Origin: Actinoallomurus soli
Lineage (GTDB): Bacteria; Actinomycetota; Actinomycetes; Streptosporangiales; Streptosporangiaceae
DNA length: 64,000 nucleotides
Assembly (NCBI RefSeq): GCF_024055715.1
Contig: NZ_JAMXMV010000004.1
Coordinates: 186,001 to 250,000, forward strand
Reading direction: 5' to 3'
This document shows, in pieces, positions 16,556 through 64,000 of this stretch. Numbering within the stretch: the stretch's first letter is position 1; each line of letters opens with the position of its first letter. The notes beneath the pieces were generated by a model. That model had not been told where the DNA came from, ran no database searches, and saw nothing but the letters and a program-made list of their open reading frames with translations. The translations under genes were made by a program, and so were the position numbers.

Positions 16556-17536
16556 CTAGCGGGCGCGGCGGACGACGTACGGCTGGACGATGCCTAGGCC
16601 ACGGGCCGGGCGGCGGCCGATGCGGATCAGGTCGTACGCGCCGGCGCCGCGCAGGCCGTCGGCCAGGGCCGCGTCGGCGAGGACGGTGCCGGGCCGGGCG
16701 ATCGAGGTCAGCCGGCTCGCGAGGTTCACGGTCGTGCCGAACACGTCGCCCATCAGCGAGAGCACGAGACCGTACGCCATGCCGACCCGCACGTCCGTGT
16801 CGCCTCCGGCGCGGACCGCCTCGGCGATGCACAGCCCGATCTCCGCGCCGAGCGTGGGGGTCTCGGCGGTGTAGAGGACCTCGTCTCCCAGGGTCTTGAC
16901 GATCCGCCCGCCGTGCTCGGCCACGACGTCGGAGGCGGTCTCCTCGAACCGCTCGACCAGGTCGGCCAGCTCCAGCTCGCCGAGGTTCCGGCTGGTCGCC
17001 GTGAACCCGACGATGTCGGCGAACCCCACCGCGACCCGCAGCCGCCCCGGAACGGCGTCCTCCGCCGCCGACGCGGTCAGCGCGCGGGTGCCGGCGGCGG
17101 CGAGCTGCCGCCGCCACGCGTGGACGAGGAGCGGCTCCAGCGCCGCGATGTGCCCCTCGGCGTGCTCCATGATCATGCGGACGACGTCCGGCGAGGGCGG
17201 CTGCAGCGGATCGGCCAGCGCGCCGACGATGATGTCGATCTGCCACTCGGCGAGCCGCGCCATCGTCTGGCCGACGGCGCGGACCATCCGCAGGACCATC
17301 TCCTCGTCCAGCAGGCCCTCGCCGAGGAGGTCCTTGATCCGGACGAGCGCGTCGAGGTCGCCCTCGGTGAAGGCGACCGTCTCGTCGGCGAGGTGGGGGA
17401 AGCCGAAGGCCCGCCACAGCCGCTGGGTGAACTCCGGCGACACCCCGGACCGCTCGATCGCGTCGATCCGCGTGAACCTCAGCTCACCGCCGAGGAGGAG
17501 CTCCTCGATCTCCTTCGGCTCCGGCACGTCGCTCAT
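16556..17536 (-). CDS. Class III adenylate/guanylate cyclase
   Basis: 326 residues, soluble. Residues 1-150 form an all-helical regulatory domain like that of mycobacterial Rv1264/Rv2212-type cyclases (EIEELLLGGELRFTRIDAIE, RLWRAFGFPHLADETVAFTE). Residues 160-320 are the class III catalytic domain: metal Asp in VGFADIVGFT, substrate-region Lys and second metal Asp in VKTLGDEVLY, and the transition-state Asn/Arg in VNLASRLTSIARPG. It converts ATP (or GTP) to the cyclic nucleotide, probably as a dimer. Mycobacterial relatives respond to pH or fatty acids through the N domain. It follows the PH-domain gene by 11 bases and is probably the last gene of the row that begins with the FtsK module, which would place a second-messenger output next to it. 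Confidence 0.9.
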   Translation of the reverse strand: MSDVPEPKEIEELLLGGELRFTRIDAIERSGVSPEFTQRLWRAFGFPHLADETVAFTEGDLDALVRIKDLLGEGLLDEEMVLRMVRAVGQTMARLAEWQIDIIVGALADPLQPPSPDVVRMIMEHAEGHIAALEPLLVHAWRRQLAAAGTRALTASAAEDAVPGRLRVAVGFADIVGFTATSRNLGELELADLVERFEETASDVVAEHGGRIVKTLGDEVLYTAETPTLGAEIGLCIAEAVRAGGDTDVRVGMAYGLVLSLMGDVFGTTVNLASRLTSIARPGTVLADAALADGLRGAGAYDLIRIGRRPARGLGIVQPYVVRRAR

Positions 17537-17547
17537 GTACGGCCCGT

Positions 17548-18057
17548 CTACGGCTTGACGCCGTCGCCGTCGGTCAGCTCCTCGACGATCCGGTAGAGCT
17601 GGTTCTGGGTGTACTCGACCCGGGGGATGTTCTTCAGGACGAGCTGCCCGTGCTCACCGCCCGACTCGACGATCAGCGTGCCGGTCCCCAGCATCCGCTG
17701 GATCAGGTTGTGCTCGAACGACACGTCGTTGACCCGGGTGAGCGGGATGTCGCGCCCGGAGCGGGACAGGATGCCGTGCCGCAGCACGAACCGCCGGTTC
17801 GTGAGGGTGTAGGACGTGGTGACCCAGCGCAGGAACGGGATCAGCCCGACGACGAGGATCGCGACGACCGCGACCGCCGCGATGATGAGGCGGATCACCG
17901 TCTGCGCACTGCCGCCCGGGATGAAGACGATGGCGGCGACCGCCACGGCGACCGTCACGACCGCCCAGAAGATCGTGCCGACCAGCGTCGACCAGTGCGG
18001 GTGGAACTCGAGGACGATCTCTTCGTCCTCGCCCAACGAGCTCTTCGCAAGACCCAT
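17548..18057 (-). CDS. PH-domain (bPH2/YdbS-like) membrane protein
   Basis: 169 residues. Two membrane helices lie at about residues 24-48 and 58-78, after a short soluble start (LGEDEEIVLEFHPHWSTLV). They are followed by a bacterial pleckstrin-homology-like domain: TTSYTLTNRRFVLRHGILSR, SGRDIPLTRVNDVSFEHNLI, GTGTLIVESGGEHGQLVLKN, IPRVEYTQNQLYRIVEEL. Such proteins are common in actinobacteria, often near birA and carboxylase genes, but their function is unsettled. The gene lies 39 bases after the coiled-coil membrane gene and 11 before the cyclase, so co-transcription is likely. Confidence 0.85.
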   Translation of the reverse strand: MGLAKSSLGEDEEIVLEFHPHWSTLVGTIFWAVVTVAVAVAAIVFIPGGSAQTVIRLIIAAVAVVAILVVGLIPFLRWVTTSYTLTNRRFVLRHGILSRSGRDIPLTRVNDVSFEHNLIQRMLGTGTLIVESGGEHGQLVLKNIPRVEYTQNQLYRIVEELTDGDGVKP

Positions 18058-18096
18058 GGCGTCATCCTGGCAGAAACGGAGGGGTGGGAAATGTCA

Positions 18097-18783
18097 TCAC
18101 GTCACAAAGTGGACAACGATGAAGATGAGGGCGATGACCCACACGCCACCGCCGCCGACGAGGCCGCCCGTCGCGGTGTCGACGGCGTACTCGCGCTCCT
18201 CGTGCGACGTGCGGAGCCGGATCCAGCCGGCCGCCGCGACCTGCCCGAGCCACGGTGACGCCAGCACCGGCCCGTACGCGAGGGCCAGCCGCGCCTGCCC
18301 CAGGCCGCGCAGGCTCTCGGCCAGCTCGAAGCCGATCGCGGTGACGACGACGGCCACCACGAAGCCCAGCACCGCCATCTGGACGTACCGGCCGGCGAGG
18401 GCGTAGTGGACCGGCTCGCGCACGCGCCGGTGCGCGTCGCCCACCAGCTCGGCCGCCTCCTGGTCGGGGCGCACGTCGTCGGCGGGGTCGGGCAGCGGGC
18501 CGACCGCGTGCGGGCCGAAGCGGGTGGTCAGCTCCCGCCAGACGCCGGCGGCCCGCTCCTCCAGGCCGTCGAGGCGCGCCCACTCCTGCTCGACCGAGGC
18601 GTACGCGGCGGTCCGCCGCTCCTCGGCCTCCTCCAGGCCGCGCCGGGCCCGCTCCGCGGCGAGCAGCCTGCGGCCGGCCTCGGCGGCGTACTCCTTGTAC
18701 GCCCGCCGTGCCGCCTGCGGATCGTACGCGCGCCGGGCCGCCTGCGGGTCGTATGACCGCCGTGCCGCCTCCGGGTCCGTCAT
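18097..18783 (-). CDS. Coiled-coil membrane protein with YDPQAARRA repeats
   Basis: 228 residues, no recognised family. The N-terminus holds three tandem units: RRSYDPQAA, RRAYDPQAA, RRAYKEYAA. A long charged helix follows to about residue 95 (AGRRLLAAERARRGLEEAEE), likely a coiled coil. Membrane helices lie at about residues 130-150 and 163-185, and a last one at the very C-terminus (GGGVWVIALIFIVVHFV). The repeats look cytoplasmic and may be a docking surface. It starts 13 bases after the FtsK-like ATPase stop, so it is almost certainly co-translated with it and may be its membrane partner. That role is inferred from context only. Confidence 0.6.
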   Translation of the reverse strand: MTDPEAARRSYDPQAARRAYDPQAARRAYKEYAAEAGRRLLAAERARRGLEEAEERRTAAYASVEQEWARLDGLEERAAGVWRELTTRFGPHAVGPLPDPADDVRPDQEAAELVGDAHRRVREPVHYALAGRYVQMAVLGFVVAVVVTAIGFELAESLRGLGQARLALAYGPVLASPWLGQVAAAGWIRLRTSHEEREYAVDTATGGLVGGGGVWVIALIFIVVHFVT

Positions 18784-18796
18784 CTGCCCTCCACCC

Positions 18797-21346
18797 TCAC
18801 GCGACGCCGTCCCCCGCCTCGCTCATCACCTCGAACGGGATGATCGGCTGGGGCGGCACGCCGGTGCGCTGGTCGTGGAACAGGGCCCGCCGGTGGCGCG
18901 GGGTCCAGCTCAGCATCTGGCCGCCCGGCAGCGGCGACAGCTCGCTGTCCCGTACGTCCAGGGCGACCCAGGCGTCGATGTTGCGCACGTTCCCGACCCG
19001 CTCGACGACGTCGGCCTTGAGCCGGTCCGTCGTCCGCCACCAGCCGAGCACGTGCATCCGGCGCTCCGGGCCGTGCTCGACGAGACGGCGGACCGCCCGG
19101 CGCAGGTCCTCGGCGCGGCCGGTCGCGGCGTCCACCGCGAACAGCGCGAGGTACTCGGGCACGTCCCGGTCGGCGGGCTCGGGCAGGTCGCCGCCGAGCG
19201 TGACCTGGTGCCCGTCGTCGGCCAGCCGCCGGGCCAGCAGCCCGACCCGGGGCTCGAGCTGTGCGTCCAGCGCGTACAGCCGGAAGACCGCCGATCCGGG
19301 CGCGTGCCCGCGCGACAGCGACAGCACCGCGGAGGCGAGCACGTCGTACGCCTCGTCGGCGCGGGTGCCGACGACCGCGAGGTTGCGGCCGGGCGCGCGG
19401 TCGAACCGCACGGTCGCCGCGCTGCCGACCAGGTCGATGAGCTGGCCGACCGCGCTCTCGCCCGGCGGCAGGGCCGGCGCCGTCATCAGCTCCGGCACGT
19501 GCGCGCCGTCGAAGATGCGCGGCGGCGCGAGGTGCTCGGGGCGGCGCTGCCACAGCTCTCGCTGCAGCGCGTCGAACGTGCCCGCCGCCCCGGCGTCGGG
19601 CAGCCGCGCGATGCGGTTGGCCTGCCGCGCGCCCGACTCGGCGTTCACGACCGCGCAGAAGCGCGCCACCTGCAGCGCCGCGGTGTTGTCGTCGGCGAGG
19701 ATGCGGCGCGCCTTGGGCAGCGCGATCCGCAGCGTGAACTGGTCCAGGATGGCGCCGCGCCCCCACAGCGACTGGACGCCGCCGATGTTCTGGCTGGCCA
19801 GGACCAGGTGGATGCCCTGGGACCGGCCCCGGCGGGCCAGGTCGTTGAGGAGGTACAGCGACTCGTCGGTGATCTTGTCCTGCTGCTGGATCAGCACCTG
19901 GAACTCGTCGATCACCGCGACCATGCGCGGCCAGTGCCCGTCCGGGTCGACCGCCCGCAGCTCCTCCAGCTTCGTGACCTCGTGCTCGCGGGCGGCGGCG
20001 CCCCGGCGTTCGAGCTCGCGGGCCAGGAAACGCAGCAGCGCCAGGCCGAACTCCCGGTCGTTGTTGATGTTCACGCCGATGAGCCGGGCGTGCGGCAGCC
20101 ACGTCTTGTCGGTACGGCCGCTGGCCAGGCGGGCGAACGACACGCCCTCCTTGAAGTCTAGCAGGTAGAACTCCAGCTCGTCGGGTGAGTACCGCGCGGC
20201 CATCGACCCGATCATGGCGTAGAGGAAGTTCGTCTTTCCGGAGCCCGGCGGGCCGCCGACGAGCGCGTGCACCGGGTCGTCGCCGAGGAGGACCTCCACC
20301 GGCTCGTACCGGTCGACGTCCTCGCCGATGGGGGCGCGCACCCCGGCCGCCGACGACTCGCTCCACATGCGGTGCGGGACCAGCTCGGCGAAGCGCGGCG
20401 GGTCGCGTTCGATGCCCGCCCAGCGGGCGGCGCGCTCGCAGACCGCGCGGACCAGCTCGGGCGGCGGCGGCTCGACCGTCACCGGCAGCTCCCCGGTCAT
20501 CGAGGTGGTGACGCGGCCGTCCGCCGTGATGTGGATCGTCTCGATGCCCGGCGCGTCCTCGGCGGGCACGTCGCGGCAGACGACGTGGATGCCGCAGGCC
20601 GCGCCGGCGTGCATCACGCTGTTCAGGTGGGCGACCTCGTCGTCGCGGAGGCCGCGCACCGGGCTCTGCACGATGACGACCTGCCACGGCTCGGGCCGCC
20701 GTCCGGTCGCCGCGGCGAGCTCGGCGAGGGAGGAGTGCCCGCCGCCGAGCACGTCCCGCTGGATGCGCCGGATGTCACGGTCAAGCGAGCCGAGGAGATC
20801 CTTGAACTCCTCGACGCCGTACACGGTGAGCAGGCCGGGCCGGGACAGGGCGTGGAAGCCGCCGAGACCGGCCCCGAGCCGCCGCGGATCGTACAGGCTC
20901 ACCCGTACGGAGCCGGGCCGCGTCATCGCCACGATCCGGACGAGCAGCGCGTCGACGATGGCGTCGGCGAGCGGGGTCTGGCCCCCGGTGATCTTCAGGT
21001 GGCCGGAGTCCAGCAGCGGGATCAGCGCGGGCACCTCACCGGCGGCCGTGCCGACGCGGTAGAGGCACGGCCCGGAGTCGGCCGGCTCGGGCTCGGCCGG
21101 CCAGTCCGCCCAGGGCGCGGACGCGGCGCCGGGCGCGGCCTCGGCGGCCAGCTCCCGCCAGCCGGCCACGGCCGTCGCCGTCTCCGGGCCGCTCGTCGCG
21201 GCGACGTCCCGGCGGCCCTGCTCGACCGCCGCCTCCGCCTCGGCGATCATCTCGTCGAGCCGGCTCCGGCGGGCGCGGATCGCGCCGCGCGCCTGCCGGA
21301 TGTCCTTGCGCACGGCGGCAACGAGATCGCCGGGCTTGAGCGTCAT
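18797..21346 (-). CDS. FtsK/SpoIIIE-type ATPase with one active and two degenerate modules
   Basis: 849 residues, no membrane helix. Residues 5-70 form a charged coiled coil. Residues 90-290 look like a FtsK-fold module without a P-loop (VRVSLYDPRRLGAGLGGFHA, PWQVVIVQSPVRGL). Residues 340-600 are a complete FtsK/SpoIIIE motor: Walker A GGPPGSGKT at 364-372, LLDFKEGVSF, Walker B MVAVIDEFQ at 475-483, ASQNIGGVQS and later GARQANRIARLP. Residues 630-849 look like a third module with a lost P-loop (RNLAVVGTRADEA). This tripartite layout recalls EccC of type VII secretion, but EccC has N-terminal membrane helices, absent here. It is preceded by a small helical-protein gene and followed by two membrane-protein genes. 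It may drive protein export or DNA translocation; I cannot tell which. Confidence 0.85.
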   Translation of the reverse strand: MTLKPGDLVAAVRKDIRQARGAIRARRSRLDEMIAEAEAAVEQGRRDVAATSGPETATAVAGWRELAAEAAPGAASAPWADWPAEPEPADSGPCLYRVGTAAGEVPALIPLLDSGHLKITGGQTPLADAIVDALLVRIVAMTRPGSVRVSLYDPRRLGAGLGGFHALSRPGLLTVYGVEEFKDLLGSLDRDIRRIQRDVLGGGHSSLAELAAATGRRPEPWQVVIVQSPVRGLRDDEVAHLNSVMHAGAACGIHVVCRDVPAEDAPGIETIHITADGRVTTSMTGELPVTVEPPPPELVRAVCERAARWAGIERDPPRFAELVPHRMWSESSAAGVRAPIGEDVDRYEPVEVLLGDDPVHALVGGPPGSGKTNFLYAMIGSMAARYSPDELEFYLLDFKEGVSFARLASGRTDKTWLPHARLIGVNINNDREFGLALLRFLARELERRGAAAREHEVTKLEELRAVDPDGHWPRMVAVIDEFQVLIQQQDKITDESLYLLNDLARRGRSQGIHLVLASQNIGGVQSLWGRGAILDQFTLRIALPKARRILADDNTAALQVARFCAVVNAESGARQANRIARLPDAGAAGTFDALQRELWQRRPEHLAPPRIFDGAHVPELMTAPALPPGESAVGQLIDLVGSAATVRFDRAPGRNLAVVGTRADEAYDVLASAVLSLSRGHAPGSAVFRLYALDAQLEPRVGLLARRLADDGHQVTLGGDLPEPADRDVPEYLALFAVDAATGRAEDLRRAVRRLVEHGPERRMHVLGWWRTTDRLKADVVERVGNVRNIDAWVALDVRDSELSPLPGGQMLSWTPRHRRALFHDQRTGVPPQPIIPFEVMSEAGDGVA

Positions 21347-21424
21347 GTGGGGGTTCCTGCGGCTTTCACGCAGACGGCGGTGGGCGGGGTACCTCGGTCG
21401 GGGACGTGCGGGGGTGCGGTCGCC

Positions 21425-21685
21425 TTACAGCCCCTCGGCGTAGGTGTTCGCCTCTTCGATCGCGGCGCCGATCTGGTTCTGGCACTCCTCGATGCTCTCG
21501 ACCGCCTGCCCCATGGCGCCCAGCGCGCCGCTCAGGGCGTCGTGCTCGCTCCCCTGGGCCACCGCGATCAGGTACTGCAGCGCCGACTCGGCCCGGCTCC
21601 CGGCCTGGACGAGCAGCTGCACTGCCTGCTCGGCCTCTTCGCCGGCCTGGGCGATGGCGCCCTTGAGCTCAGCCACACTGGCCAT
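21425..21685 (-). CDS. Small all-helical protein, DUF6244/WXG100-like
   Basis: 86 residues starting MASVAELKGAIAQAGEEAEQ. It is predicted to be two long amphipathic helices with a short turn near GSEHDALSGALGAMGQAVES, and ends EEANTYAEGL. Size and heptad pattern resemble WXG100/ESAT-6-like proteins, although the WXG turn is absent; it fits DUF6244 by eye. There is a strong ribosome site (GGAGG, about seven bases before ATG). It lies 78 bases upstream of the FtsK-like ATPase on the same strand, as substrate genes lie near EccC genes in type VII loci. The FAD monooxygenase gene ends 32 bases upstream, so a promoter in that gap is uncertain. Confidence 0.7.
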   Translation of the reverse strand: MASVAELKGAIAQAGEEAEQAVQLLVQAGSRAESALQYLIAVAQGSEHDALSGALGAMGQAVESIEECQNQIGAAIEEANTYAEGL

Positions 21686-21717: not shown

Positions 21718-23136
21718 TTAAACCGGCGCGTTGCGGACCGGTCCAGTTGGGCAGGTCCGCCGACCGATGTAGCCGTCCGGGCGGATGACGACGGAGGTGC
21801 CGGCCGAGGCGTCGTACGCGGTGTGGGCGTGGCCGTGAGTGTCGATGACGTAAGGTCCGGGCGCGGACTCGCCGGGGCGCAGGACGGCGTAGGCATGAGG
21901 CGCGTCCGGGGCGGGGGCGCCGAAGGTCAGATGGGTGGCGTGCGGGCCGCGGAACAGGTCGAAGAGCCGGATCGTCCTGCCGTCGGCGTCGGTGACGGGG
22001 GCGTCCGGCGCGCGATCGCCCGCCACGATCCGGCCCTCGGTCGTCCGGTACGTCACGTCCAGCTGGCGGGTGTTCTCCCCGCGTTCGTGGGCGTCCTCCG
22101 CCCCCTCCCGGTGTTTGCGCATGAGCTCGGAGCTGATGCGCAGGACCCTCTCGGCGGTCGCGCGGCGTTCGGTCTCGTAGCCGTCGAGCAGCTCGGGTGA
22201 GCCGTCGGCCAGCTTCCAGCCGAGGTTGTAGGCGTCCTGCACGCCGGTGTTCAGCCCTTGCCCGCCGGTGGGCGGATGTGCGTGGGCGGCGTCGCCCGCG
22301 AGGAAGACCCGGCCCACGCGGAAGCGCCCGGCCAGGCGGATGTTGGGCCGCCAGACGGTCGACCAGGCCAGCCGGGTCAGCCGGACGCCCGCGCCGAGCG
22401 CGTCCAGCTTGCCCTGCAGGATCTCCAGCGAGGCCTCGTCCTCGTCTTCTCCGAGCGGGGCGTTGAACTGGAAGAGGCCTGGTGTGCTCGGCAGCGGGCT
22501 CAGGCCGACTCCGACCATCGGGGCGTCCGCGCGGGCGAACCAGTAGCCCCAGGCGTGGTCCAGCCCGTCGGCGGCCACGTCGCCGAGCAGCATCCGGATG
22601 GTCTCGTCCGTGACCCCCTCGAAGGGGACTCCCAGGACCTTGCGGACGGTGCTGCGTCCGCCGTCGGCGCCCACCAGATAGGAGGCGCGCACGGTCTCGC
22701 CGGTGGACAGGCGCGCCGTCACGCCGTCCGCGTCCTGGTCGAAGTCGACCAGGGCGGTGTTCAGCTCGACCCGGGTCCCGAGCTCGGCGAGCCGGTCCCG
22801 CAGGATGCCCTCGGTCTGGGACTGACCGAGGACCCACGCGTTCGGGTAGGGCACGTCGGGGGTCGGCTCGAGGTGCTCAGCCATGCGCCGGTCCATCACG
22901 TACTTCCCGTCGAGGTGCACGCGTATCACCGGCACGGGGCGTCCCTGCCGGAGCACCGCGCCGAGAACGCCGAGGTCCTCGAAGATTTCGAGCGTGCGCG
23001 GCTGGAGGCCGTCGCCCCGCGACCCGGCGAAGTACTCGCTCGCCTTGTCGATGACACGGACGCCGAGCCCCCGGCGGGCGAGATCGATGGCCAGGGTCAG
23101 GCCGGTCGGGCCGGCGCCCGCGATGATCACATCCAT
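21718..23136 (-). CDS. FAD-dependent aromatic monooxygenase
   Basis: 472 residues, soluble. Class A flavoprotein hydroxylase signatures are complete: the Rossmann motif MDVIIAGAGPTGLTLAIDLA, the FAD/NAD(P)H motif YLVGADGGRSTVRK, and the second FAD motif VFLAGDAAHAHPPTGGQGL, then GVQDAYNLGWKLA. The last 100 residues form a thioredoxin-like tail typical of polyketide and phenol hydroxylases. It would hydroxylate an aromatic substrate using NAD(P)H and O2; the substrate is unknown, and no biosynthetic cluster is present. It diverges from a TetR gene with a clear palindrome in between. The ATG at 23136 is chosen for the Rossmann motif at residue 2; the open frame continues 11 codons into the operator. 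Confidence 0.9.
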   Translation of the reverse strand: MDVIIAGAGPTGLTLAIDLARRGLGVRVIDKASEYFAGSRGDGLQPRTLEIFEDLGVLGAVLRQGRPVPVIRVHLDGKYVMDRRMAEHLEPTPDVPYPNAWVLGQSQTEGILRDRLAELGTRVELNTALVDFDQDADGVTARLSTGETVRASYLVGADGGRSTVRKVLGVPFEGVTDETIRMLLGDVAADGLDHAWGYWFARADAPMVGVGLSPLPSTPGLFQFNAPLGEDEDEASLEILQGKLDALGAGVRLTRLAWSTVWRPNIRLAGRFRVGRVFLAGDAAHAHPPTGGQGLNTGVQDAYNLGWKLADGSPELLDGYETERRATAERVLRISSELMRKHREGAEDAHERGENTRQLDVTYRTTEGRIVAGDRAPDAPVTDADGRTIRLFDLFRGPHATHLTFGAPAPDAPHAYAVLRPGESAPGPYVIDTHGHAHTAYDASAGTSVVIRPDGYIGRRTCPTGPVRNAPV

Positions 23137-23185
23137 CACTGAACCACCACTCACTGAATCAACTTTCACTGAATTTAGATTCAGT
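23137..23185. promoter_or_regulatory. TetR operator candidate, ACTGAAT-N4-ATTCAGT
   Basis: A perfect 18-bp dyad, ACTGAAT then TTAG then ATTCAGT, lies at 23168-23185. The half-site ACTGAAT recurs at 23153-23159, and a variant ACTGAAC follows the monooxygenase start. The cluster sits between the divergent monooxygenase and TetR genes and overlaps the likely promoters of both. Confidence 0.7.
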
Positions 23186-23221
23186 ATGTTGGTTGGTACG
23201 GTTCCCGGTCAAGGAGGTTCC

Positions 23222-23818
23222 GTGAAGCGCAAGGAGAGAGCGGCGGAGACCGAGGCCGCTCTTAAGGCCGCCGCGAAGCGGGTGTTCGCCGAACGCGGCT
23301 ACCTGAACACGAAGATCGCCGACATCACCGCCGAGGCCGGGCGGGCAGCGGGCTCCTTCTACAACCACTTCGCCGGGAAGGAGGCCCTCCTCGAAGCGCT
23401 CCTGGCCGACATGGCGACCGAGGGCGACTCCGCGGCCTCCGCTCCCGGGCACCTGTCGGACTTCACCGACCCGGAGGCGGTCCGCCAGCACATCGAGGTC
23501 TCCGTCCGCCTCTACCGGGAGCACGCCGCGACGATCCGCGCCGTGCAGGAGGCGGCCCTGGTCAGTGAGAACTTCGCCGGCACCCTGGCCAGGTTCGCCG
23601 GGAGCGAGATGGCCGACATCCTGGGCCACGTCACCTGCGTCACCGACGCCGGGCGCCGGCTCCCCGCTCCACCGGAGACCGCGCTGCGGATGGTGTACTC
23701 CCTGGTCCACGCCTTCCTGCAGATCCGGCGGCAGCCCGCCGACGCGCTCAGCGACGAGGAAGTGACCGAGGCCCTGACCCGCTTCGTCTACCGCGGCCTC
23801 AACGGCTGCGACTTCTAG
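23222..23818 (+). CDS. TetR-family regulator of adjacent monooxygenase
   Basis: 198 residues from a GTG start (VKRKERAAETEAALKAAAKR). AAGGAGG at 23211-23217 lies five bases before this GTG and fixes it over the ATG at 23186, which overlaps the operator. The helix-turn-helix is VFAERGYLNTKIADITAEAG, RAAGSFYNHFAGKEALLEAL. The C-terminal domain is of the KstR2-like/TetR_C type by general appearance. It very likely represses the divergent FAD monooxygenase. Its TAG stop shares CTAG with the stop of the convergent birA gene. Confidence 0.9.
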   Translation: MKRKERAAETEAALKAAAKRVFAERGYLNTKIADITAEAGRAAGSFYNHFAGKEALLEALLADMATEGDSAASAPGHLSDFTDPEAVRQHIEVSVRLYREHAATIRAVQEAALVSENFAGTLARFAGSEMADILGHVTCVTDAGRRLPAPPETALRMVYSLVHAFLQIRRQPADALSDEEVTEALTRFVYRGLNGCDF

Positions 23819-61780: not shown

Positions 61781-64000
61781 ATGCGAATCTCGCTCACGGT
61801 GATGACCGATCAGGGTCCCCGTGACGTCGTGGTCAACGGTGATTCCGATATGACGGTAGAAACCGTTGCGAGATCACTAATTACGGCGCTCAACACCGAG
61901 CCGGTCAAAGAGGCCCTCGCGGAAGTCGTACACCTACCAAGCGCACGCTGGGTGGCCGAATCCGCGCCGCCCCTGTGGGCGGGCGGCCGCATGCTCGATC
62001 CGGCCGTCCCCGCGGCACGGGTCCTGCGCGACGGCGCCCTCGTGGCCCTCGACCCCGCCGGCGCCGTCGCGACGGTCCTGGCCGAGCCCACCGGAAGCGC
62101 CGAGATCCGTGTCGCCGGCGGTCCCGCCGCGGGCGCGGTGCACCGCGTCGGCATCGGCGAGACCACCGTCGGCAGCGGCCCCGACGTGGACGTGCGCCTC
62201 GGCGACCCGTCCGTTCCCGCGCACGCCCTGACCGTCACGGTCGAGTCCCACCGCGTCACCGTCTCCGTCACGGTCGCCGCCGCCGGCGACGCCCTCCTCG
62301 ACGGAGCCCCGCTCGACGGCACCGCCCAGTGGACGCCCGGCGGGATGCTGACCGTCGGGTCCTCCGTGCTGACCTACGTCCCGGCCTCCGCGCCGGACGC
62401 CCACCTCGCACCTCTGGAGGACGGCGGGCTCGCCTACAACCGGCCGCCCCGCCTGCTGCCGCCCGAGCGGCCCTCCAGGCTGGAGGTCCCGCAGGAGCCG
62501 CCGAAGACGCAGCGCGAGCGGCTCCGGCTGGTCGGCTCGCTGCTGTTCGCCGCGGCCGGCGTCGTCATGGCCGTCGTCACCGGCCAGTGGTACTGGGCGC
62601 TGATGGCCCTCGCCTACCCCGTCATCCAGGTCGGCGAGTGGATCGCCGACCGGATGTACGGCCGCACGTCCTACAAGAAGGCGATCAAGGACTACCGGCG
62701 CGCCAAGGAGGAGTTCGACGCCGCGCTGGAGCACCTGCGCCACGCCGACGAACAGGACCGCCGCGCGCTCGCGCCGGACGCCGCCGAGGTGCTCCTGACC
62801 GCCACCGGCCCGCGCCGGCGGCTCTGGGAACGCCGCCGCTCCGACGCCGACACCCTGTACCTCCGCGTCGGCCTCGCCGACCTCCCCGCGGACATCGAGC
62901 TCGTCCCCGGCCGCGGCGGCGACACCGACCCCGTCATGCCCGAGCCGCCCGTCGCGCACGCCGTCCCCGTCTCGCTGCCCCTCGCCGACCTCGGCGTCAT
63001 CGGGCTCGCCGGCCCTCGCGACCGCTCCCGCGCGCTCGCCCGCTGGCTCGTCGCCCAGGCCGCCGCCCTGCACAGCCCCCGCGACCTGGCCATCGTCGTG
63101 CTCTCGGCCGACCCCGACGGCGGTGAGCACTGGAACTGGGTCCGCTGGCTGCCCCACACCGCCCCCCGTGAGGGCGAGGAGTGCGTCGCGCTGATCGGCG
63201 CGGACCCCGACTCCGTCGCCCACCGCATCACCGAGCTGGCGATCCGCATCACCGAACGCCGCCGCGCCGCCGACCGGTCCGCCGGCGGCCTCTTCGGCGG
63301 CGCCGCCCAGGGCTCCGGCCCGTACAACATCCTCCTCGTCATGGACGGCGCGCGACGCCTGCGCCGGATGCCGGGCATGCCACAGGTCCTGTCCGCCGGC
63401 CCGTCGTACGGGCTGCACGCGATCTGCATCGACGACGACGAACGCCTCCTCCCGGAGGAGTGCACCGCCGTCGCCGTGTGGGACTGGGACCGGCCCGCGC
63501 ACGTACGGCTGCGCGGCCACGGCCTCGACTCCCTCGGCCCGATCCTCGCCGACCAGGTCTCCACGGGCTGGTGCGACCGCATGGCCCGCGCCCTCGCCCC
63601 CGTACGGGACGTCTCCCGCGACGACGCCGAGGCGGCCGTCCCGCGCGAGGCCCGGCTCCTCGACGTCCTCGGCATGCCGAACCCCACCGCCGCCCACGTC
63701 CAGGCGATCTGGGCCGCAGGCGGCCGTACGACCGCCGTCCCGATCGGACTGTCGGCCGACGGCGTGTTCACCGTCGACCTGCGCGTCGACGGGCCGCACG
63801 GCCTCATCGCCGGCACGACGGGCGCCGGCAAGTCCGAGCTCCTGCAGACCCTCATCGCGTCGCTCGCCGTGGCGAACCGGCCCGACGAGCTGACGTTCGT
63901 CCTCATCGACTACAAGGGCGGCGCGGCGTTCGCGGACTGCGCGTCGCTCCCGCACGTCGCCGGAGTGGTCACCGACCTCGACGGCCACCTCACCGAACGC
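61781..64000 (+). CDS. FHA-FtsK/SpoIIIE (EccC/EssC-like) ATPase, 3'-truncated by window edge
   Basis: At least 740 residues are visible and the frame is open at the right edge. It starts MRISLTVMTDQGPRDVVVNG with CGGAGGGG before the ATG. Residues 1-90 resemble a ubiquitin-like fold, residues 105-205 an FHA-like domain (VHRVGIGETTVGSGPDVDVR, LGDPSVPAHALTVTVE). Two membrane helices follow (LVGSLLFAAAGVVMAVVTG, WYWALMALAYPVIQVGEWIA). The first FtsK motor has Walker A AGTTGAGKSELLQT (Lys684) and FVLIDYKGGAAFADCASLPH. This is the EssC-type architecture of type VII secretion, which recognises substrates and powers export. The other secretion genes, if present, lie beyond the edge. Confidence 0.88.
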   Translation, partial: MRISLTVMTDQGPRDVVVNGDSDMTVETVARSLITALNTEPVKEALAEVVHLPSARWVAESAPPLWAGGRMLDPAVPAARVLRDGALVALDPAGAVATVLAEPTGSAEIRVAGGPAAGAVHRVGIGETTVGSGPDVDVRLGDPSVPAHALTVTVESHRVTVSVTVAAAGDALLDGAPLDGTAQWTPGGMLTVGSSVLTYVPASAPDAHLAPLEDGGLAYNRPPRLLPPERPSRLEVPQEPPKTQRERLRLVGSLLFAAAGVVMAVVTGQWYWALMALAYPVIQVGEWIADRMYGRTSYKKAIKDYRRAKEEFDAALEHLRHADEQDRRALAPDAAEVLLTATGPRRRLWERRRSDADTLYLRVGLADLPADIELVPGRGGDTDPVMPEPPVAHAVPVSLPLADLGVIGLAGPRDRSRALARWLVAQAAALHSPRDLAIVVLSADPDGGEHWNWVRWLPHTAPREGEECVALIGADPDSVAHRITELAIRITERRRAADRSAGGLFGGAAQGSGPYNILLVMDGARRLRRMPGMPQVLSAGPSYGLHAICIDDDERLLPEECTAVAVWDWDRPAHVRLRGHGLDSLGPILADQVSTGWCDRMARALAPVRDVSRDDAEAAVPREARLLDVLGMPNPTAAHVQAIWAAGGRTTAVPIGLSADGVFTVDLRVDGPHGLIAGTTGAGKSELLQTLIASLAVANRPDELTFVLIDYKGGAAFADCASLPHVAGVVTDLDGHLTER

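What the first reader, a model, noticed from the sequence alone, without database searches (positions are those of the whole stretch)
16556..21685. Candidate minimal translocation system: WXG-like small protein, tripartite FtsK ATPase, coiled-coil membrane protein, PH-domain protein and cyclase
Five minus-strand genes lie with gaps of 78, 13, 39 and 11 bases. The first encodes an 86-residue helical hairpin like an ESX substrate. The second is an 849-residue FtsK protein with one intact P-loop (364-372) between two modules whose P-loops are lost, the plan of EccC but without its membrane helices. The third has YDPQAARRA repeats, a long coiled coil and three membrane helices and could be the missing anchor. 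The last encodes a class III cyclase. No EccB, EccD, EccE or MycP homologue is present, so it is not a standard type VII system. Its function, whether protein export, DNA movement or a signalling sensor, is open.
Basis: partly seen in the sequence, partly recalled or inferred. Interest (0 to 1): 0.72.

Follow-up and report, generated by a model that had tools for sequence, protein, structure and literature searches.

The report
Stripped-down relative of type VII secretion
Three neighbouring genes, found side by side in several groups of soil actinobacteria, look like a stripped-down cousin of the type VII secretion machine with its motor, membrane anchor and small client made as separate proteins; the other two genes in the reported cluster are ordinary neighbours.

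Summary
The five genes and their spacing are real, but only three form a unit: an 86-residue helical hairpin, a soluble 849-residue EccC-like ATPase, and a membrane protein. In 394 class genomes, 39 have the ATPase, 38 the hairpin, 37 both; the two ATPase-only genomes carry a divergent hairpin on inspection. PH and cyclase are not part: they stand beside birA without the cassette in family relatives, and the cassette sits between birA and PH only in this genus (Actinoallomurus). By fold the ATPase is EccC's degenerate DUF module, one active module and a degenerate D3-like module, without membrane helices. The hairpin is probably a distant WXG100 relative without the Trp; it ends in Tyr-x-x-x-Leu-COOH in 62 of 62 distinct sequences. 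Some Micromonosporaceae carry extra hairpin genes away from any such ATPase, as ESX substrates can be. Best reading: a minimal type VII-like motor that recruits hairpin clients and is docked on a separate membrane protein. Docking, anchoring and export are inferred. My paper searches found no description of it; the T7SSc-j variants have membrane-bound, four-module ATPases.

The parts
21425..21685 (-). 86-residue helical hairpin, WXG100-like without the Trp
   Evidence: ORF; model of helices 4-43 and 49-85 at pLDDT 89.7; family alignment
21428..21442 (-). C-terminal tail Tyr-Ala-Glu-Gly-Leu (residues 82-86), the Y-x-x-x-L end of the family
   Evidence: 62 of 62 distinct relatives and 29 of 29 class-survey loci, one of them already counted
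18797..21346 (-). 849-residue soluble EccC-like ATPase: N-terminal helix, DUF-like module, active module, D3-like module
   Evidence: ORF; Pfam and NCBIfam; model and fold comparison
20231..20254 (-). Walker A GPPGSGKT (residues 365-372) of the active module
   Evidence: sequence; intact in 33 of 33 relatives
18097..18783 (-). 228-residue membrane protein with charged helical N-terminus; candidate anchor
   Evidence: ORF; two hydrophobic helices; homologue downstream in 76 of 80 loci
18700..18753 (-). YDPQAARRA tandem repeat in the membrane protein, lineage-specific
   Evidence: alignment
17548..18057 (-). bacterial PH-domain membrane protein: neighbour, tested and judged not part of the unit
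   Evidence: Pfam; synteny
16556..17536 (-). class III cyclase: neighbour, tested and judged not part of the unit
   Evidence: Pfam; synteny

Best explanation
A three-protein chromosomal module related to type VII secretion. The soluble EccC-like ATPase, probably a hexamer with one active module per subunit, is held at the membrane by the neighbouring membrane protein, which supplies the helices that EccC carries in its own chain. The WXG100-like hairpin is its client: its invariant Tyr-x-x-x-Leu C-terminus is read by the ATPase, most likely by the D3-like module as EsxB tails are read by EccC ATPase3, and the motor then moves the hairpin, alone or as a pair, across or onto the membrane. Shown here: the genes travel together, the ATPase's fold plan and active-site pattern, the conserved tail, a confident predicted hairpin, and extra hairpin genes elsewhere in some genomes. 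Inferred: hexamer, anchoring, docking, export.
For: Co-occurrence: 37 genomes with both, of 39 with the ATPase and 38 with the hairpin among 394; 32 of 38 hairpins on the same contig and strand within 1.72 kb, and a divergent hairpin beside the two remaining ATPases. In 80 named loci hairpin in 68, membrane protein in 76. ATPase fold: best whole-chain match T. curvata EccC; module 1 fits the EccC5 DUF domain, module 3 an EssC D3 domain. Tail: 62 of 62. WXG100 relation: Pfam WXG100 is the family most often matched, 15 of 28 members at E<=0.1; profile comparison E 7e-4 against controls of 0.012 or worse. Extra hairpins without a nearby ATPase: 9 of 13 loci fetched.
Against: No WXG motif; the profile comparison has a probability of only 26% and the window's own hairpin does not list WXG100 in Pfam at E<=1. 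In M. tuberculosis the EsxB residues that dock lie beyond the YxxxD/E motif, whose Asp makes no contact (PMC6954902), whereas this hairpin ends at that place, so docking by the tail is an analogy. No pore, mycosin or EccB/D/E-like gene was seen beside it. The downstream protein lacks membrane helices in the Actinopolyspora-type loci examined and is not recognised by the profile in f19. Four of 80 loci lack the hairpin without a contig break. Several sister-ATPase loci (L238, L239, L244, L245) show no hairpin.
Confidence: 0.5

Rival explanations
1. A type VII-derived module that no longer secretes: the hairpin is a regulatory subunit of a membrane-tethered ATPase that sorts or remodels proteins at the cytoplasmic face.
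For: Single hairpin per genome in the window's own genome and in most hits; no outer components beside it; stable chromosomal neighbourhoods; sister ATPase loci contain Hsp70, GrpE and DnaJ-like genes.
Against: Extra unlinked and paired hairpins with similar tails in some genomes suggest clients rather than one fixed subunit.
Confidence: 0.27
2. A DNA translocase, working like the FtsK-like SffA with its small membrane partner SmeA at septa, or in conjugation.
For: The active module fits FtsK motors best (Z 24.4); SffA-SmeA shows that an FtsK-like protein can have a separate small membrane partner (PMC4255298, passage).
Against: Modules 1 and 3 match EccC/EssC domains, and NCBIfam scores EccCa far above FtsK. 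Neither partner is explained by DNA transport. No phage match and one distant plasmid match. The cited review finds SffA and SmeA only in streptomycetes and two relatives.
Confidence: 0.1
3. An accessory motor of the genome's own standard type VII systems, with EccB/D/E supplied in trans.
For: The same genome has several EccC-type proteins of 1338-1465 residues and 16 WXG100 matches over the cut-off.
Against: It carries its own hairpin and its own membrane partner, and its module order lacks one EccC module.
Confidence: 0.08
4. A single five-gene system in which PH protein and cyclase signal to the motor.
For: Short gaps and the same order in 7 of 7 other same-genus genomes.
Against: Both neighbours exist beside birA without the cassette, and the cassette without them.
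Confidence: 0.05

Closest known systems
Type VII secretion, T7SSa/ESX and variants T7SSb-j (EccC/EssC ATPase plus WXG100 protein)
   Same: EccC-like ATPase beside a small helical hairpin; DUF-like, active and D3-like modules; unlinked and paired small genes in some genomes
   Different: ATPase without membrane helices and with three modules, not four; no EccB, EccD, EccE or MycP seen beside it; hairpin without WXG and with YxxxL-COOH in place of YxxxD/E
LXG-associated helical proteins (Laps) of T7SSb
   Same: Small WXG100-fold proteins, some lacking the WXG motif (PMC11217815, passage); LapD2 is among Foldseek's top 50 for the hairpin, without significance
   Different: No LXG toxin was noticed beside the hairpins; genus-spanning Y-x-x-x-L end
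SffA-SmeA of Streptomyces
   Same: FtsK-like protein with a separate small membrane partner (PMC4255298, passage)
   Different: No hairpin partner described there; distribution differs; sequences not compared
DUF6244 (PF19757)
   Same: 87-residue protein beside a sister ATPase in L241; weak in-register similarity to some hairpins
   Different: Separate Pfam family; the L241 member does not end in YxxxL

Membership tests
Type VII secretion system | EccC/EssC-family ATPase | tested here: inconclusive
   EccC is the best fold match and EccCa the best NCBIfam match, but at 94.6 bits against a cut-off of 509 and over one module
Type VII secretion system | Membrane-bound ATPase with four NTPase domains | tested here: not met
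   No membrane helix by hydropathy; three modules; description of T7SSc-j from PMC11217815 passages
Type VII secretion system | Export of the WXG100-type protein | not testable with these tools
   Needs a secretion experiment
Type VII secretion system | EccB/EccD/EccE/MycP (T7SSa) genes at the locus | tested here: inconclusive
   None among the Pfam-scanned neighbours of the window or noticed in gene lists; no dedicated search was run
WXG100 (PF06013) | Helix-turn-helix hairpin of about 100 residues | tested here: met
   Model at pLDDT 89.7, 86 residues
WXG100 (PF06013) | Central W-x-G motif | tested here: not met
   A-Q-G in the window; no Trp in the 19-row alignment at that place
WXG100 (PF06013) | Score over Pfam's cut-off | tested here: not met
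   Window member unlisted; L068 member 19.1 bits against 27.3
WXG100 (PF06013) | C-terminal YxxxD/E | tested here: not met
   YxxxL-COOH instead; the Tyr is 39 residues after the Trp position, against 40 in 12 of 15 WXG100 proteins
FtsK/SpoIIIE DNA translocase | FtsK-type motor domain | tested here: met
   Pfam FtsK_SpoIIIE 72.8 bits; Z 24.4 to FtsK motor
FtsK/SpoIIIE DNA translocase | DNA translocation | not testable with these tools
   Needs an assay
SffA-SmeA | Sequence relation to SffA and SmeA | not tested
   No SffA or SmeA sequence was compared

The most novel reading that the evidence does not exclude
A distinct, undescribed type of type VII-like protein translocase in Actinobacteria: soluble motor, separate membrane anchor, and W-less Esx-like clients, including unlinked and paired ones, selected by a Tyr-x-x-x-hydrophobic C-terminus.
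Probability: 0.4. Interest if true: 0.8.

Novelty: new variant of a known kind. Interest (0 to 1): 0.64.

Why it matters
If true, it splits the jobs that EccC combines in one chain (anchoring, motor, substrate reading) into separable proteins in culturable environmental bacteria. That would give a small test bed for how type VII ATPases read C-terminal tails and handle folded hairpins. The hairpin is found in 46 of 61 surveyed genomes of the Micromonospora family (43 at E<=1e-21) and 33 of 35 of another family, so an unstudied and largely retained cell function may be at stake.

Tried and rejected
Defence system: PADLOC gave generic FtsK-domain, cyclase and coiled-coil matches; no phage record matched the ATPase at E 1e-20, one plasmid record did at 29% identity. 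Not supported.

Five-gene unit with PH and cyclase: rejected by synteny. YDPQAARRA as a marker: rejected, the repeat is local.

Structural search of the hairpin: Esx and Lap structures stand in Foldseek's top 50 at E 0.4-1.5, beside unrelated coiled coils; in VIA-align's 50 rows no Esx entry appears. Uninformative for a plain hairpin.

First profile comparison (E 1.4e-5, probability 80%) used a WXG100 alignment with two sequences chosen because they hit the hairpin profile. Repeated with the 13 own-genome sequences alone: E 7e-4, probability 26%; that is the value used.

Rows dropped: of the 43 genomes with a hairpin match at E<=1e-3, 5 were left out of the count for lying above 1e-18: G349, G351, G362, G585, G640. 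Two of these, G585 and G362, are WXG100 proteins in loci with type VII-like genes; G640 showed nothing in my gene scan; G349 and G351 were not looked at. The 600-bit line for the ATPase was drawn after seeing a gap in the scores (627 to 397), and one search scored only two candidates per genome. Fifteen further genomes have only lower-scoring sister ATPases; I looked at some: L240, L241, L242 and L243 have small proteins beside them, L238, L239, L244 and L245 show no hairpin by the profile.

Not done: coiled-coil prediction, complex prediction, a tree of the ATPase, terminator and promoter scan.

Papers: searches are search listings; no listing or passage described the cassette. The library lacks most subscription journals.

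Full report
What is there. The five minus-strand genes exist as described, with gaps of 78, 13, 39 and 11 bases. Pfam finds an FtsK/SpoIIIE domain in gene 2, nothing at E<=1 in gene 3, a bacterial PH domain in gene 4 and a class III cyclase domain in gene 5. The genus is Actinoallomurus by inference: contigs of 6 of 7 same-genus genomes have the lengths of named records, five labelled Actinoallomurus and one Actinomadura sp. DC4.

Which genes belong together. All five are in the same order in 7 of 7 other same-genus genomes. A scan of named genomes with the ATPase alignment found 441 relatives and kept the best 80. In these 80, profiles find a hairpin upstream on the same strand in 68, the membrane protein downstream in 76, and in 59 a second, larger protein whose N-terminus is related to the hairpin. 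Of the 12 without a hairpin, 8 are cut by a contig end just before the ATPase. The other 4 (L087, L101, L121, L123) have a 441-496-residue protein there instead, with no Pfam family in the one scanned at E<=0.001 (L087); one of these genomes has another copy with a hairpin (L126). The 4 without a membrane-protein hit are L065, where a weak homologue is seen (as L046), and three Actinopolyspora loci; the two Actinopolyspora proteins examined, 127 and 144 residues, have no membrane helix. Most of the 80 are Micromonospora, so they are not independent.

In 394 genomes spread over the class, 39 have the ATPase at 600 bits or more, 38 the hairpin at E<=1e-18, and 37 both. Of the 38 hairpins, 32 lie on the ATPase's contig, all on its strand and at most 1.72 kb away; 5 lie on another contig of the same draft genome; one genome has no ATPase hit and its hairpin is at a contig start. 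The two ATPase-only genomes, G453 and G478, carry a divergent 86-residue hairpin beside the ATPase, ending YASSL and YAARL. In f19 the order is ATPase, a membrane protein with two to four hydrophobic helices, hairpin; that membrane protein is not recognised by my profile. Hairpins at E<=1e-10 occur in 46 of 61 genomes of the Micromonospora family (43 at E<=1e-21) and 33 of 35 of f19; these two surveys looked for the hairpin only. That the first is Micromonosporaceae rests on one contig with the length of the named Phytohabitans suffuscus chromosome.

PH and cyclase are not part. The cyclase has a relative in 46 of 61 family genomes. Of 28 fetched loci outside the genus, with 1.5 kb flanks, 23 have PH, 25 birA (a biotin protein ligase) and 21 both, 19 of them in the order birA-PH-cyclase on one strand; none has hairpin, ATPase or membrane-protein gene. 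In 20 larger regions of 11-13 kb, 15 have PH, 19 birA and again none the cassette. Conversely, of 97 cassette or survey loci searched, only the 6 same-genus ones have birA, PH or cyclase, in the order birA, cassette, PH, cyclase. In the window a TetR-type gene and an FAD monooxygenase gene lie between birA and the hairpin. So short gaps within this genus do not show a shared function.

The ATPase. Only the middle module keeps Walker A and B, in 33 of 33 relatives. The model (mean pLDDT 76.9) shows a long N-terminal helix and three alpha/beta modules. The best whole-chain Foldseek match is T. curvata EccC at E 3.6e-32 with TM-score 0.46. VIA-align 2 fits residues 62-312 to the EccC5 DUF domain (Z 15.7, rmsd 4.1, 217 residues), the middle to the FtsK motor (Z 24.4, rmsd 3.2, 272), and 610-839 to EssC domain D3 (Z 15.8, rmsd 3.6, 201); a chain titled only 'ATPase', 6jd5, fits 613-842 better (Z 19.7, rmsd 2.8, 212). 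Modules 2-3 also fit EccC ATPases 2-3 (Z 23.8, rmsd 6.3, 483), so D3 rather than D2 is likely, not certain.

The hairpin. The model is two helices, 4-43 and 49-85, at pLDDT 89.7. Nineteen diverse members, each cut to its last 86 residues, align without a gap, with A28, G45, Y82 and L86 invariant. The chain ends in Tyr-x-x-x-Leu in 62 of 62 distinct sequences, taken as the best profile hit of each locus, and in 29 of 29 class-survey loci, of which one was already counted. Pfam's WXG100 matches 15 of 28 members at E<=0.1, best 5e-5, more than any other family (next 7 of 28); the window's own member does not list it at E<=1. A profile comparison with 13 WXG100 proteins of the window's own genome gives E 7e-4, probability 26%, over 69 gapless columns, with G45 on the Gly of WXG and Ala43 on the Trp. 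Controls: 200 column shuffles best 0.012, 200 heptad-preserving shuffles best 0.031, reversed profiles 0.028 and 0.069. Against 35 families of neighbouring genes the hairpin profile hits itself, the second protein (6e-5) and then unrelated ones from 0.031. Two sister ATPases have small neighbours that match WXG100 below its cut-off (E 2e-4, with a W-S-G, and 7e-4), and a third has a DUF6244 protein at E 2e-27. Common descent with WXG100 is likely; membership is not claimed.

Clients elsewhere. Some genomes of the Micromonospora family have up to four hairpins. I fetched 13 of the 26 additional places. Two proved to be full cassettes (L307, L308), one has its own ATPase next to it (L301), one has an ATPase 3-4 kb away (L304), and nine have no family ATPase in the stretch read (about 6.5 kb each side; 2.5 kb on one side of L303). 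The nine hold 11 hairpin genes, in two loci as adjacent tandem pairs. Ten have a Tyr and one a Trp five or six places from the end, with a hydrophobic residue last or next to last. The window's own genome has one hairpin only.

How it most likely works. EsxB tails bind EccC ATPase3; in T. curvata V98 and L102 enter the pocket, in M. tuberculosis M98 and F100 (PMC6954902, passages). YxxxD/E is required for type VII export in mycobacteria (PMC3935865 and PMC6954902, passages). Here the Tyr stands 39 residues after the Trp position, against 40 in 12 of 15 WXG100 proteins, and the chain stops at a Leu four residues on, the spacing of V98 and L102. Against this, the M. tuberculosis residues that dock lie beyond YxxxD, whose Asp makes no contact. 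The simplest reading is still a motor that reads this tail while docked on the membrane protein. Hexamer, anchoring, docking and export are inferred.

Novelty. The survey of type VII variants describes T7SSc-j as having a membrane-bound ATPase with four NTPase domains (PMC11217815, abstract and passages). Searches listed no paper on this cassette. A Micromonospora lupini genome paper lists FtsK/SpoIIIE-like genes under type VII, one of them (40438) outside the three clusters it names (PMC4182475, passages); I did not establish whether it is this ATPase. I file the finding as a new variant of a known kind.

Noticed in passing
window 61781-64000, + strand, continuing beyond the window (open frame 1838 aa): A second FtsK/SpoIIIE-type protein with an FHA-like N-terminal match below Pfam's cut-off (Yop-YscD_cpl, 30.6 of 33.2 bits), resembling FHA-bearing EssC proteins.
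   Followed up: partly
L049, L050, L052, L237, L240: Sister ATPases in loci with Hsp70 (L049, L052 by eye, L240 by eye), GrpE (L050) or DnaJ-TPR-like (L052) genes, some with a kinase-vWA gene (L052).
   Followed up: partly
L241 10868-11131: DUF6244 (PF19757), a family of unknown function, stands directly after a sister ATPase and a membrane protein in a Micromonospora-family genome; the two-term paper search found none.
   Followed up: partly
L068 6707-7741 and equivalents in 59 of 80 loci: A second protein of about 240-380 residues between hairpin and ATPase whose N-terminus is related to the hairpin and whose C-terminal part has no Pfam match; absent in Actinoallomurus.
   Followed up: partly
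L087, L101, L121, L123: ATPase plus membrane-protein pair without a hairpin, with a 441-496-residue protein upstream and in three of the four (L087, L121, L123) ABC-transporter-like genes downstream.
   Followed up: no
window 21718-23818: An FAD monooxygenase gene and a divergent TetR-type regulator gene lie between birA and the hairpin in the window; in L043 and L044 birA directly precedes the hairpin.
   Followed up: no
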